In this document: in pieces, positions 41,750 to 49,732 of the stretch
How the letters are laid out: every line of letters begins with the position of its first letter
Position numbering within the stretch: position 1 is the stretch's first letter
Assembly (NCBI RefSeq): GCF_021646685.1
Contig: NZ_JAKJHW010000011.1
Coordinates: 20,728-84,727, forward strand
DNA from: Pseudalkalibacillus salsuginis
GTDB lineage: Bacteria; Bacillota; Bacilli; Bacillales; Fictibacillaceae
DNA: 64,000 bases
Direction of reading: 5' to 3'
The notes under the pieces: model-generated
Databases searched by the model: none
Told to the model about the DNA's origin: nothing
What the model saw: only the letters and a program-made list of their open reading frames with translations
Program-made: the position numbers and the translations under genes

Positions 41750-42262
41750 GTGAAAACCAATACCACTATCAGATGCGCCTGGTGCGAAGAAGACCCTTTG
41801 TTGATCAGTTATCATGACAAAGAATGGGGGAAGTGTCTAACGGGTGATGACCACTTATTCGAAGCATTGACGTTGGAAATTTTCCAGGCAGGGTTAAGCT
41901 GGAAAACCATATTACATAAACGTGAAAATTTTAGAAAAGCCTTTGACCACTTCTCGATCGGTAAAGTGAAGGCTTACGGGGAAGAGAAAATTAAAAAGCT
42001 CTTGGAGGATAAGGGGATTGTACGCCACCGCAGAAAGATTGATGCCACAATCCATAATGCGAATGTGGCGGAAGACCTGATTGAAAGATACGGAAGCTTG
42101 AAAAACTATTTTGACTCATTACCAAAGGATAAGCATGAGAAACAAAAAGCAATCCAAGCAACATTCAAGCACGTTGGTCTGACAACGGCTGAAAGTTTCC
42201 TGATGGCAGCAGGATTCATAGAACCAGAACACAGTGAAGAATGCTTTTTAGGAAAGAAATAA
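41750..42262 (+). CDS. tag: DNA-3-methyladenine glycosylase I
   Basis: 170 aa. Removes 3-methyladenine from alkylated DNA. RCAWCEEDPLLISYHDKEWG and LEIFQAGLSWKTILHKRENFR are typical of Tag. The zinc-snap ligands appear as an N-terminal Cys/His pair and EPEHSEEC at the C-terminus. GTG start at 41750. A little shorter than E. coli Tag (187 aa) but all motifs are present. Confidence 0.95.
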   Translation: MKTNTTIRCAWCEEDPLLISYHDKEWGKCLTGDDHLFEALTLEIFQAGLSWKTILHKRENFRKAFDHFSIGKVKAYGEEKIKKLLEDKGIVRHRRKIDATIHNANVAEDLIERYGSLKNYFDSLPKDKHEKQKAIQATFKHVGLTTAESFLMAAGFIEPEHSEECFLGKK

Positions 42263-42287
42263 AAGAAGGATAATGAAACCCTTCTTT
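42262..42287. terminator. Bidirectional terminator between tag and the peptide precursor
   Basis: aaagaagg / ccttcttt stem with A-rich and T-rich flanks; the two genes converge here. Confidence 0.65.
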
Positions 42288-42540
42288 AACACTTTACGTT
42301 CATTTCCATCGGAGGTAATTCATCGATAGCAATAGTCGATTTATTCATGGGTGGCAATTCATCAATAGCAATAATCGATCTATTCATAGGTGGTAGCTCA
42401 TCAATGGCTATAGATGATTTTATCATTGGAGGTAGTTCATCAATTGCAACTTTGTTATGATTTAAAACACCATGGATACTTACTAGTATTAGCGCAACTA
42501 AAACAAGTGCTGATATACCTAAGAAAGTATGCTTTTTCAT
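42286..42540 (-). CDS. Secreted signalling-peptide precursor with four AIDELPPM repeats
   Basis: 84 aa from ATG 42540 (AAAGGGGTG 9 bp upstream). Residues 1-24 form a Sec-type signal or anchor (KKHTFLGISALVLVALILVS). The mature part is four tandem 13-residue units: VAIDELPPMIKSS, IAIDELPPMNRSI, IAIDELPPMNKST, then IAIDELPPMEMNVKC. In DNA the units start exactly 39 bp apart (42307, 42346, 42385, 42424). Codons for the core differ between copies at third positions while the peptide is unchanged, so the peptide itself is conserved. It follows an RNPP-type regulator gene by 22 bp, as papR follows plcR and nprX follows nprR. Release of AIDELPPM-like pheromones is inference. Confidence 0.85.
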   Translation of the reverse strand: MKKHTFLGISALVLVALILVSIHGVLNHNKVAIDELPPMIKSSIAIDELPPMNRSIIAIDELPPMNKSTIAIDELPPMEMNVKC

Positions 42541-42562
42541 GATTATATACACCCCTTTATAA

Positions 42563-43819
42563 TTAAAAGAAATTTTTTCTTGAATCATTTGCTAATTTAT
42601 AATACTCACTAGATTTCTTATACTGGGATTTTTTAAAATAGTATTCGGCAAGTAGTTCGGACGCATCGCTTAAATATTCCCAGAGATTCTTCTTGTTAAA
42701 ATATGGAATAGCTTCCTTTCTTAAAAGATTTTCATATGATTCATCCAACTCATTGATAACTCTTTTATATAAGATACTGTAGTGTAAATAATATTCGTAA
42801 TTATAATTTTCATCTAATTTTTCTTTAACTTTATTTAACCATTCCAAAGAGGATTTCTTATCCTTTATACGGAAGTACTCTCTTGCAATTAAATAGTAAG
42901 TAATAAAACTGTCTTGTGTTGGTAATTTTGATTTAAGATTAATACTTTTATGGTACAACTCGATAGCTTTCTTAGTTTCGCCCATACTAGAATGTACGTA
43001 CCCTAGGTTATGGTAAATGATAGCTATAGTTTGCAATTCATTAAAGGTCTCAGCGAATTTTAAAGCTTTATTGAAATGAAATCTTGCCTGTGAATAATTG
43101 TTTATTCTTCGGTTACTAATGCCTAATAATATATGGCAATCCGCACTTCTATTAAAGTTGTATTCTTTATCGAAGATCTCTAAGGCTTTATAACAATAAT
43201 TAATAACAGATGTATTATGGAAAAAGTGGCTATGCGCAAGTGCAAGGTTATAAAAGAAAACTCCTCTTTCAACAGGGTTTAGAGGGATTTGTTGTATAAA
43301 TTTCTCTGCATTTTCGAAATAAGATAAAGAGGATTGAAATTCCTTTTTGTTATAAAAATAAATTCCTATTATATGGTTATAATGAAACTCTAAATCACTT
43401 TCAAATTTATTATCATGATGGTTTTTTATTTCTTTAATCAATTTATCAGCTTTATCAAATTTTTTATTACTAACTAAACTCTTTACAAGGAAAACTTTAT
43501 ATTTTAACTGTATTACTGGATCTTCTATAAAAGGTATGTAGGTTTCTATTTTTTTTTGTGTTTCTGAAGATTCCTTCCATTTTCTGGATGTCATCAGATA
43601 GTTCCACTCATTAAGTAATCCGAGTATATTTACATCTAGTTGTTCTTCAGCAGCGGAGATTCCAAGCTTTTCACATAGGAGTTCTATAACGTCTTCGCTA
43701 GATTTGGCATCTCCATTTTCGATTTTACTAAGGTAAGAGATGGAGCAAATTCCCCTGGCTAATTCTTCTTGAGTGAGGCCTTTTGTTTTTCTGTAATATC
43801 TTATTCGTTGACCTATCAA
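42563..43819 (-). CDS. RNPP-family quorum-sensing regulator (NprR/PlcR-like: HTH + TPR)
   Basis: 418 aa from TTG 43819 with GGGAGGGGGG 6 bp upstream (an upstream extension lacks an RBS). The N-terminal HTH (IGQRIRYYRKTKGLTQEELARGICSISYLSKIENGDAKS) is of the NprR/PlcR type. The remaining ~340 residues are about eight TPR-like repeats (e.g. SALAHSHFFHNTS-type helices, IAIIYHNLGYVHSSMGETKKAIELYHKSI). Such proteins bind re-imported oligopeptides and then activate or release DNA. The size is close to NprR (423 aa). Its ligand is probably the repeated peptide encoded next to it; target genes are unknown, with the divergent gene at 44060 the first candidate. Confidence 0.88.
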   Translation of the reverse strand: MIGQRIRYYRKTKGLTQEELARGICSISYLSKIENGDAKSSEDVIELLCEKLGISAAEEQLDVNILGLLNEWNYLMTSRKWKESSETQKKIETYIPFIEDPVIQLKYKVFLVKSLVSNKKFDKADKLIKEIKNHHDNKFESDLEFHYNHIIGIYFYNKKEFQSSLSYFENAEKFIQQIPLNPVERGVFFYNLALAHSHFFHNTSVINYCYKALEIFDKEYNFNRSADCHILLGISNRRINNYSQARFHFNKALKFAETFNELQTIAIIYHNLGYVHSSMGETKKAIELYHKSINLKSKLPTQDSFITYYLIAREYFRIKDKKSSLEWLNKVKEKLDENYNYEYYLHYSILYKRVINELDESYENLLRKEAIPYFNKKNLWEYLSDASELLAEYYFKKSQYKKSSEYYKLANDSRKNFF

Positions 43820-43994
43820 ATTATTCCCCCCTCCCGAACTTGGGAAAATCGACCCGAAAACCCCTTGAATATCGTCTATCAAAACTACCATTTTTCCCAA
43901 TACAGGACCATATGTTCCTTTGATAAAATAAATATAACACAAATTAAGCTCATTAGTTAGTCTTTCAAACTAGTTTTTCTGTATTTTGGAAAAA

Positions 43995-48968: not shown

Positions 48969-49142
48969 GGCGTCCAGCTTCATCGCCCAGCCACTTGGAT
49001 CACTTCAGTCCTACTGTGGCGGTCGACACATTGATTTAGGTCGAAGGGTTTGCCCACGCAGAACCGAACTTTGTTTGGTTCGAGCCTCCTCGTCGGACTT
49101 CCAGTGACCTTCGTGGCTGCCCAGGGCGATTGCGCTTTTCTT
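48969..49142 (+). repeat. Dispersed hairpin repeat, copy 5
   Basis: Copy with gcgtccagcttcatcgccc start and tgcgcttttcttt end. Its right end touches the stop codon of the rhomboid gene, so it may serve as that gene's 3' end structure. Confidence 0.85.
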
Positions 49143-49732
49143 TAACCATACCGTTTTCGTTTTCCCATCAGGATGATCGGACCTAAGGCTGCTCCTCCAA
49201 TTAAACCGAAAAGGTGGCCCAGTATATTGATGTTAGGGGTTACGAATGTCATGACCAAGCTTAAAACAAGGATTGTCATAACGATTTGTTTATTTTGTTG
49301 ATCGATCAGCTCTTTGCGTGCATAAATAATGTATACATATAAACCGAATAGGCCGAATATCGCACCAGAGGCACCGATGTGACTATAACTAGGTCCTTGG
49401 AGAATGAAAGTTGCGATATTTGCAATTACCCCGGATCCGATGTAGCCTATGATGAATTTGAATTTCCCTAAGATCCGTTCCAGTCCTGGACCGAATAGGA
49501 ATAATGAAAATGTGTTGAACAGGACATGGGGAAAAGATTCGTGGATGAAAATCGGCGTTACGAGCCTCCAATATTCACCTAATCCGATATAAAAATTGAT
49601 GCCAGCTGTAAGGTGCAACAATGCGGGGAATAAATTGACACCGATAAATAAAACGATATGAAGAGCCATGATTATGGTGATAATAGGATACAACCTTCTG
49701 AACGATCGAAAATTTTCTGTCCGGATAAACAT
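49142..49732 (-). CDS. ydcA: Rhomboid family intramembrane serine protease
   Basis: 196 aa, six TM helices. Catalytic Ser in HIGASGAIFGLFG and catalytic His in NILGHLFGLIGGAALG; the first loop has WRLVTPIFIHESFPHVLFNTFSLFLFGP. The position between ydbT and acpS equals B. subtilis ydcA. Substrates unknown. Confidence 0.9.
   Translation of the reverse strand: MFIRTENFRSFRRLYPIITIIMALHIVLFIGVNLFPALLHLTAGINFYIGLGEYWRLVTPIFIHESFPHVLFNTFSLFLFGPGLERILGKFKFIIGYIGSGVIANIATFILQGPSYSHIGASGAIFGLFGLYVYIIYARKELIDQQNKQIVMTILVLSLVMTFVTPNINILGHLFGLIGGAALGPIILMGKRKRYG

What the first reader, a model, noticed from the sequence alone, without database searches (positions are those of the whole stretch)
42286..43819. 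Possible new RNPP quorum-sensing pair with a four-repeat pheromone precursor
Seen: a regulator with NprR/PlcR-type HTH plus TPRs, followed 22 bp later by an 84-aa secreted precursor with four 13-residue tandem units (exact 39-bp period), core AIDELPPM. Codons vary between copies at third positions while the peptide stays the same, which suggests selection on the peptide. Known: PapR (ADLPFEF) and NprX (SKPDIVG) come from precursors of similar layout, usually with a single copy. Inference: export, proteolysis to AIDELPPM-like peptides, Opp re-import, binding to the TPR domain. Multiple copies would raise pheromone yield per precursor.
Basis: partly seen in the sequence, partly recalled or inferred. 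Interest (0 to 1): 0.93.

Follow-up and report, generated by a model that had tools for sequence, protein, structure and literature searches.

The report
Swappable four-copy quorum-sensing pheromone cassette
Two neighbouring genes of a Bacillus-like bacterium encode an NprR-type receptor and a small precursor with four copies of one peptide that likely acts as a cell-to-cell signal; compared with a sister species the sensing half and the signal differ as one block, most likely exchanged by recombination, while the DNA-binding half and its predicted target site are kept, so species would change their signal without rewiring the genes it controls.

Summary
In detail: an HTH-TPR receptor (42563-43819, minus strand) is followed after 22 nt by an 84-aa precursor with four exact AIDELPPM units that differ only at synonymous sites. 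It is an NprR-type RRNPP pair; multi-copy precursors are already published for NprR, so that part is not new. Three things go beyond the finding. (1) Thirty of 33 complete orthologous loci in the family carry arrays of 3-9 copies of an [DE]xxP core, mostly species-specific. (2) Against a sister genome that is 96.3% identical around it, the sensor domain plus array is 57.7% identical with sharp edges, while HTH and promoter stay about 97%; other close pairs show the same, trees conflict (AU tests), and sensor divergence tracks the pheromone rather than the flanks. The block looks like an exchanged pherotype cassette. (3) The output side is fixed: a paired site, TTGGGAAAA-N43-TTTTCCCAA, lies 18-20 nt before 33 of 33 receptors (one by a relaxed pattern), occurs in 34 of 34 family genomes (148 sites, 1 reversed-control hit), and heads secreted-protease genes among others. 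Mature peptide, binding and regulation are untested. Novelty: new variant of a known kind.

The parts
42563..43819 (-). NprR-type receptor gene, 418 residues, TTG start; N-terminal HTH, then TPR helices
43652..43819 (-). HTH part, residues 1-56, the conserved output half (mean aa identity 0.913 over 528 family pairs against 0.477 for residues 87 to end)
42265..43597 (-). Exchanged block: receptor from about codon 74 to its end, plus the precursor; 57.7% identical to sister genome G005 against 96.3% outside
42286..42540 (-). Likely pheromone precursor gene, 84 aa, four 13-residue units; AAAGGGG 11 nt before its ATG
42463..42540 (-). Predicted export signal of the precursor (about residues 1-26)
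   Evidence: hydrophobicity only
42424..42447 (-). Unit 1, AIDELPPM
42385..42408 (-). Unit 2, AIDELPPM
42346..42369 (-). Unit 3, AIDELPPM
42307..42330 (-). Unit 4, AIDELPPM
43840..43900 (.). Predicted paired operator TTGGGAAAA-N43-TTTTCCCAA; half-sites 43840-43848 and 43892-43900; ends 20 nt before the receptor start codon
42262..42287 (-). Terminator-like hairpin with T-rich tail, at the downstream edge of the exchanged block
   Evidence: pattern match; 1 found, 0.6 expected
41750..42262 (+). DNA-3-methyladenine glycosylase I-like gene (name recalled), convergent; synteny anchor in 31 of 33 family loci

Best explanation
This is an NprR-type receptor gene followed by a gene for a precursor with four copies of a likely pheromone, and its sensor domain and array differ as one block from the sister species, most likely through recombination, while the DNA-binding domain, promoter and predicted operator are kept; the precursor is predicted to be exported and cut into AIDELPPM-like peptides, which would re-enter the cell and switch the receptor on its operators. 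Shown here: gene layout, repeats and purifying selection on the core; orthologous arrays with other [DE]xxP cores across the family; the block and its edges; conflicting trees; co-variation of sensor and core peptide; a paired site of fixed spacing before every receptor examined in the family and before secreted-protease genes among others. Inferred: at low density the receptor would be peptide-free, perhaps holding Spo0F; imported peptide would lock the TPR coil and let receptor subunits occupy the two half-sites about 52 bp (roughly five helical turns) apart, changing transcription of secreted proteases and of the receptor-precursor operon itself. Because sensor and signal move together, a recipient would change pherotype in one step and keep its regulon. 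The proteases may in turn help to cut the precursor.
For: Orthologue at E <= 1e-90 in 33 of 34 family genomes, cut by a contig end in the 34th. Three or more cores in 30 of 33 complete loci, receptor-precursor gap -1 to 24 nt, tag gene convergent in 31 of 33. Core pN/pS 0.079 against linker 0.416 over 30 and 26 arrays. Window versus G005: 0.577 identity over 1324 aligned positions inside 42265-43597, 0.963 over 9397 outside; edges at receptor codon 74 and 20 nt past the precursor stop. Other close pairs with different pheromones, % nt far-upstream/HTH/TPR/downstream: G017-G011 95/97/60/93, G020-G044 91/93/61/91; same-pheromone pair G012-G018 94/94/85/94; distant pairs sharing a pheromone class: G020-G041 flank 75, TPR 77; G042-G044 flank 73, TPR 82 (48 of 253 pairs passed its filters). 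AU test on TPR data rejects four flank sister pairs, p 0.0042, 0.0011, 4e-71, 3e-4; flank data reject six TPR clades, p 0.017 to 1e-117. Partial Mantel TPR-pheromone given flank r 0.533, 0 of 5000 permutations; flank-pheromone given TPR r -0.044. The window's copies are at synonymous saturation (0.58 observed, 0.54 expected from random codon choice), so the array should be older than the G000-G005 split and was more likely acquired whole. Paired site: before 33 of 33 receptors, 32 exact and 1 by a relaxed pattern, spacer 43 in all; 34 of 34 family genomes, 148 sites against 1 in the reversed control (my sums of the table). Genes at sites: subtilases, M4 proteases, PhoX, DJ-1/PfpI, Rap-like TPR proteins and others. 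Import is possible: 7 SBP_bac_5 proteins in the genome.
Against: No experiment; the donor of the window's cassette was not found (best relative 57% identical). Three family loci break the array rule: G009 (39-aa ORF, no core), G040 (one copy), G008 (no clear repeat). Of the NprR residues that PMC4970707 names, R126, Y165, R343, H205, H206, N306, D309 and N407 are not kept, and one of four Spo0F contacts (Y118) is lost. The own-genome sites at subtilase genes carry one mismatch each; with up to 3 mismatches the own genome has 13 places against 7 in the reversed control, whose mismatch split is not shown. The three exact own sites are the receptor promoter, one between MFS and fdhD-like genes, and one 387 nt from an SDR gene. 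Outside the family the pattern is in 25 of 288 genomes (38 sites, against 7 control sites), and 11 of 11 genomes of family f21, which hold most of the nearest outside receptors, have no exact site. The window row is a long branch in the TPR tree and its AU result is the weakest of the four. Some arrays are near duplicates (G013/G019, G044/G046), so the 30 are not all independent. One genome per species: variation within a species was not seen.
Confidence: 0.8

Rival explanations
1. Discrete sensor-plus-array alleles are an ancient balanced polymorphism sorted differently into species; no recent transfer between lineages, only recombination within populations that keeps the flanks homogeneous.
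For: Shared pheromone classes in distant species (G020/G041, G042/G044) with TPR identity equal to or above flank identity; synonymous saturation inside the window's array shows an old allele.
Against: It needs many alleles kept through speciations; both models need exchange at the same edges, and my data do not separate them.
Confidence: 0.2
2. No exchange: the locus diverged in place under strong diversifying selection.
For: RRNPPA receptors are a fast-evolving family (PMC12700828, passages).
Against: Identity falls from about 97% to 58% within some tens of bases at both edges; synonymous positions inside the array are saturated while flanks differ by under 4%; AU tests.
Confidence: 0.05
3. 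The repeat protein is not a pheromone precursor but another secreted repeat product, such as a surface or antimicrobial peptide, beside an unrelated regulator.
For: No peptide has been detected; 84 aa with a hydrophobic N-terminus is not specific.
Against: Its core co-varies with the receptor's sensor domain independently of the flanks, it starts within -1 to 24 nt of the receptor stop in 33 loci, and the layout is that of published NprR/Rap pairs.
Confidence: 0.05
4. The paired site belongs to a different regulator that controls the receptor and the proteases.
For: No binding data; 11 of 11 f21 genomes with close outside receptors lack an exact site.
Against: It is in all 34 family genomes and before 33 of 33 receptors at near-fixed distance; outside the family it lies 79-355 nt before the NprR-like receptor match in 7 of the 17 outside genomes printed (positions).
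Confidence: 0.1

Closest known systems
NprR-NprX (Bacillus cereus group); PMC4970707, PMC4147580 and PMC5641580 (passages read)
   Same: HTH plus nine-TPR receptor, small secreted propeptide encoded just downstream, protease targets; strain-specific pairs, seven pherotypes in the B. cereus group
   Different: NprX is a 43-aa peptide giving SKPDIVG; here four copies of AIDELPPM with an [DE]xxP core; several NprX-contact residues are not kept; the sensor-array block is exchanged with an edge just after the HTH; a 43-bp-spaced paired site is identified
Duplicated NprX and Phr propeptides; PMC9765709 (sections 7 and 10 and passages), PMC5199041 (passages), PMC11343458 (outline, introduction, discussion)
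   Same: Several identical pheromone copies in one precursor, up to six or eight
   Different: Those papers treat duplication as a route to new specificity or more signal; here whole old arrays appear to move with the sensor domain
ComQXPA pherotypes of Bacillus subtilis; PMC6334282 (passages)
   Same: Signal genes and the 5' part of the receptor gene are hypervariable, leaving separate communication groups
   Different: ComP is a membrane kinase and ComX a modified peptide with its own enzyme ComQ (recalled); here a cytoplasmic transcription factor whose HTH is the fixed part
AimR operator of phages SPbeta and phi3T; PMC6458997 (passages)
   Same: Two inverted boxes with a long spacer bound by an RRNPP receptor
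   Different: AimR: 6-bp boxes, 25-bp spacer, binding shown; here 9-bp boxes, 43-bp spacer, several chromosomal sites, binding not shown
Rap-Phr
   Different: Rap lacks the HTH; PMC5199041 found no evidence of recombinant Rap proteins

Membership tests
NprR (RRNPPA) | N-terminal HTH domain | tested here: met
   HTH_3 6e-13, residues 6-57
NprR (RRNPPA) | Nine-TPR superhelix after the HTH | tested here: met
NprR (RRNPPA) | Secreted propeptide encoded just downstream | tested here: met
   22 nt; hydrophobic N-terminus, secretion itself not shown
NprR (RRNPPA) | Spo0F contacts D107, Y118, E188, Y223 | tested here: inconclusive
   D100, L111, E184, Y220: 3 of 4 kept, by one pairwise alignment
NprR (RRNPPA) | Peptide and lock residues R126, Y165, W167, H201, N306, D309, R343 | tested here: inconclusive
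   H201 kept, W167 replaced by F, R126 by K, the rest changed; the ligand differs too
NprR (RRNPPA) | Controls neutral or other secreted proteases | tested here: inconclusive
   Paired sites before subtilases in the own genome and M4 proteases in three Fictibacillus genomes; no expression data
NprR (RRNPPA) | Peptide-induced tetramer that binds DNA | not testable with these tools
   needs purified protein
PlcR (RRNPPA) | Five-TPR receptor, about 290 residues | tested here: not met
   418 residues, 18 helices after the HTH; PlcR chain 2qfc (293 residues) matches only at residues 2-54
Rap | No HTH domain | tested here: not met
   HTH present
ComQXPA-like pherotype locus | Polymorphic signal plus sensing region between conserved flanks | tested here: met
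   Between species; within species not seen
ComQXPA-like pherotype locus | Modifying enzyme and membrane kinase beside the signal | tested here: not met
   The cassette holds only the cytoplasmic receptor and the precursor

The most novel reading that the evidence does not exclude
In Fictibacillaceae the quorum-sensing locus is built as socket and plug: the HTH and a family-wide set of 61-bp paired operators form a fixed output socket, and the TPR sensor plus its multi-copy pheromone array is an interchangeable plug passed between lineages by recombination at the HTH-TPR boundary, giving species private [DE]xxP signals while the protease regulon stays wired. The receptor bridges half-sites about five helical turns apart, to my recollection the longest spaced operator of any RRNPP receptor.
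Probability: 0.6. Interest if true: 0.85.

Novelty: new variant of a known kind. Interest (0 to 1): 0.76.

Why it matters
How a peptide signal and its receptor change together without losing function is an open question, usually answered by promiscuous intermediates. Here the change appears to come as a ready-made pair cut at a domain boundary, with discrete alleles, known edges, sister species on either side and a countable set of candidate target sites, so specificity, regulon conservation and frequency-dependent selection can be tested directly. The paired site gives a sequence handle on NprR-type regulons, and the boundary shows where natural recombination splices sensor domains onto a DNA-binding domain.

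Tried and rejected
PlcR-type reading: rejected on TPR number and length.

Active codon scrambling that protects the repeats from recombination: rejected; synonymous differences do not exceed random codon choice (4 of 30 arrays above expectation).

RNA element in the leader: no Rfam match near its gathering score; the promoter strand folds no better than shuffles (z 0.82), so the inverted repeat is read as DNA.

A second-locus control: the genome's other RRNPP pair (L155, L156) is 91-100% identical in 100-nt blocks over the receptor body between G000 and G005 and keeps its peptide, so the drop at the window locus is not genome-wide; the surroundings of those two loci do not align, so it is a control for the genes only.

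A single-box motif with up to 3 mismatches gave 8 places against 20 in the reversed control: uninformative; the paired pattern was used instead.

Donor search: nothing above 57% identity. NprR operator in print: not found by find in PMC7756075 (no occurrence of the terms) and PMC4970707 (passages) and in search listing 94. Exchange of an RRNPP sensor-signal block in print: not seen in search listings 60, 65, 66, 98, 109; NprR with Fictibacillus: no paper. The library lacks most subscription journals.

Bugs and choices: the genome labels and precursor ends are wrong (an HTH key shared by several loci); the positions relative to the receptor start are right, and precursor ends were recomputed by hand. 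start the window precursor at upstream start codons (100 and 88 aa); the 84-aa ATG form is used here. The flank-data AU clades were named after the TPR tree was seen; the TPR-data pairs came from identities.

Rows dropped: G045 (receptor cut by the contig end) from the 34 genomes; G009, G040 and G008 (fewer than 3 cores); four more arrays from the linker figure (26 of 30); L047, L053 and L056 from the trees and Mantel test, which used 20 of the 23 loci; four duplicate loci, whose 63 loci still include near relatives.

Full report

Family picture. The orthologue is in 33 of 34 family genomes at E <= 1e-90 and cut by a contig end in the 34th. Of 33 complete loci, 30 encode a precursor with 3-9 copies of a short core: AIDELPPM, YDENPPM, AIDQTPEP, AHDDTPDL, AHDDNPRA, FDHTPGP, IDNGPNPT, ASDNSPGI, ATENNPGI and others; the exceptions are G009, G040 and G008. 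The shared feature is an acidic residue, two variable residues and proline. Outside the family 56 of 63 precursor candidates hold [DE]xxP after residue 20 (26.1 expected from shuffled tails); the seven misses hold [DE]xP, and ten loci gave no candidate under the filter. Within arrays the core is under strong purifying selection (pN/pS 0.079) and the linkers much less (0.416).

The exchanged block. Sister genome G005 is 96.3% identical over 9397 aligned positions around the locus but 57.7% over the 1324 of block 42265-43597. The block starts at receptor codon 74, just after the HTH, and ends 20 nt past the precursor stop. Residues 1-40 are 100% identical between the two, residues 81-160 about 33%; G005's sensor is instead 42-98% identical, segment by segment, to those of G003, G006 and G002. 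Fictibacillus pairs behave alike: F. enclensis and F. solisalsi share 95% far upstream, 100% of the promoter stretch and 97% of the HTH, but 60% of the sensor, and have different pheromone cores. In the nine different-pheromone pairs the best-fitting edges lie at codons 57-86 and from 3 nt before to 55 nt after the precursor stop (recomputed; see Tried and rejected); outside identity in these pairs is 0.79-0.96, inside 0.55-0.63; the same-pheromone pair gives 0.84 inside, 0.93 outside. Flank and sensor trees conflict, and AU tests reject four flank pairs on sensor data and six sensor clades on flank data. Sensor distance tracks pheromone distance after correcting for flanks (r 0.533, 0 of 5000), flank distance does not after correcting for the sensor (r -0.044). 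The window's four copies are at synonymous saturation although the flanks are only 3.7% diverged, so this array should predate the split from G005; arriving whole would explain why all four copies carry the same peptide.

The fixed output. Aligning 33 promoters shows two conserved boxes. As a pair, TTGGGAAAA-N43-TTTTCCCAA stands before 33 of 33 receptors (32 exact, one by a relaxed pattern), 18-20 nt from the start codon. Allowing spacers of 30-60, the pattern occurs three times in the own genome, each time with 43, control 0, and in 34 of 34 family genomes with 148 sites against 1 control site; of the 75 family sites printed (15 genomes), 74 have spacer 43 and one 44; N42 was also seen. In the wider order 25 of 288 non-family genomes have it, 38 sites against 7 control sites, and 11 of 11 genomes of family f21, close outside relatives by receptor, have none. 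Own-genome sites with up to one mismatch (six): the receptor promoter; two before subtilase genes (one also before a divergent DUF1287 gene); one before a DUF2188 gene; one between MFS and fdhD-like genes; one 387 nt from an SDR gene. Of the 18 non-receptor family loci, three head M4 proteases, three S8 subtilases (one by Pfam, two by the same N-terminus), five DJ-1/PfpI-like genes (by resemblance to L213), two Rap-like genes, two fdhD-like genes, one PhoX and two others.

How it would work (inferred). The precursor would be exported and cut; the alanine often found two residues before the acidic residue may mark processing. Seven oligopeptide-binding-type proteins make import possible. Peptide binding would let receptor subunits occupy both half-sites, as the tetramer model of NprR suggests (PMC4970707, passages). 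Three of four Spo0F contacts are kept, so a second, peptide-free role in sporulation is possible. Subtilases under the paired site could feed back on maturation, as the protease WprA matters for duplicated Phr propeptides (PMC11343458).

Known and new. Multi-copy NprR propeptides (PMC9765709) and pherotype loci (ComQXPA, PMC6334282) are known. I did not see, in search listings 60, 65, 66, 98 and 109, an RRNPP locus in which sensor and array move together on a fixed HTH, nor an NprR operator sequence.

Noticed in passing
L155 (G000 contig C7:898156-901262): The same genome has a second RRNPP pair: an HTH-less Rap-like receptor (about 360 aa) followed 14 nt later by a 143-aa precursor with nine HDGIIKDS units; relatives carry 9 (L156), 9 HDGIIKP-type (L158) and 3 copies (L157).
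   Followed up: partly
L071, L078, L080: Precursors ending in three SEPDHPKIV units follow NprR-like receptors in two Metabacillus records and one Peribacillus record, which suggests transfer between genera.
   Followed up: no
L149 (G049 C1:528700-536000): Four NprR-like receptor genes in tandem, without a recognisable precursor ORF within 250 nt downstream of any.
   Followed up: no
L224, L226, L228-L232 and one search places: Outside the family the paired site (spacer 42 or 43) lies before some NprR-like receptors (L224 and six more genomes) and before subtilase genes (five by Pfam, L232 by the same N-terminus), so it may be an NprR operator more widely; L227 heads an unrelated gene, and f21 genomes lack exact sites.
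   Followed up: partly
L216, L220, L187, L198: Paired sites also precede HTH-less Rap-like TPR genes (two confirmed by Pfam RapH_N), a possible link between the two kinds of receptor.
   Followed up: partly
window 48972-49144: A stretch of about 170 nt matches two other places in the G005 contig at 83-84% identity, plus a 42-nt piece at 88%: a dispersed repeat.
   Followed up: no
loci: Precursor and tag gene are 26-72 nt apart in six Pseudalkalibacillus-genus loci (378 in G006) but 406-474 nt apart in the other genera, where extra sequence lies between them.
   Followed up: no
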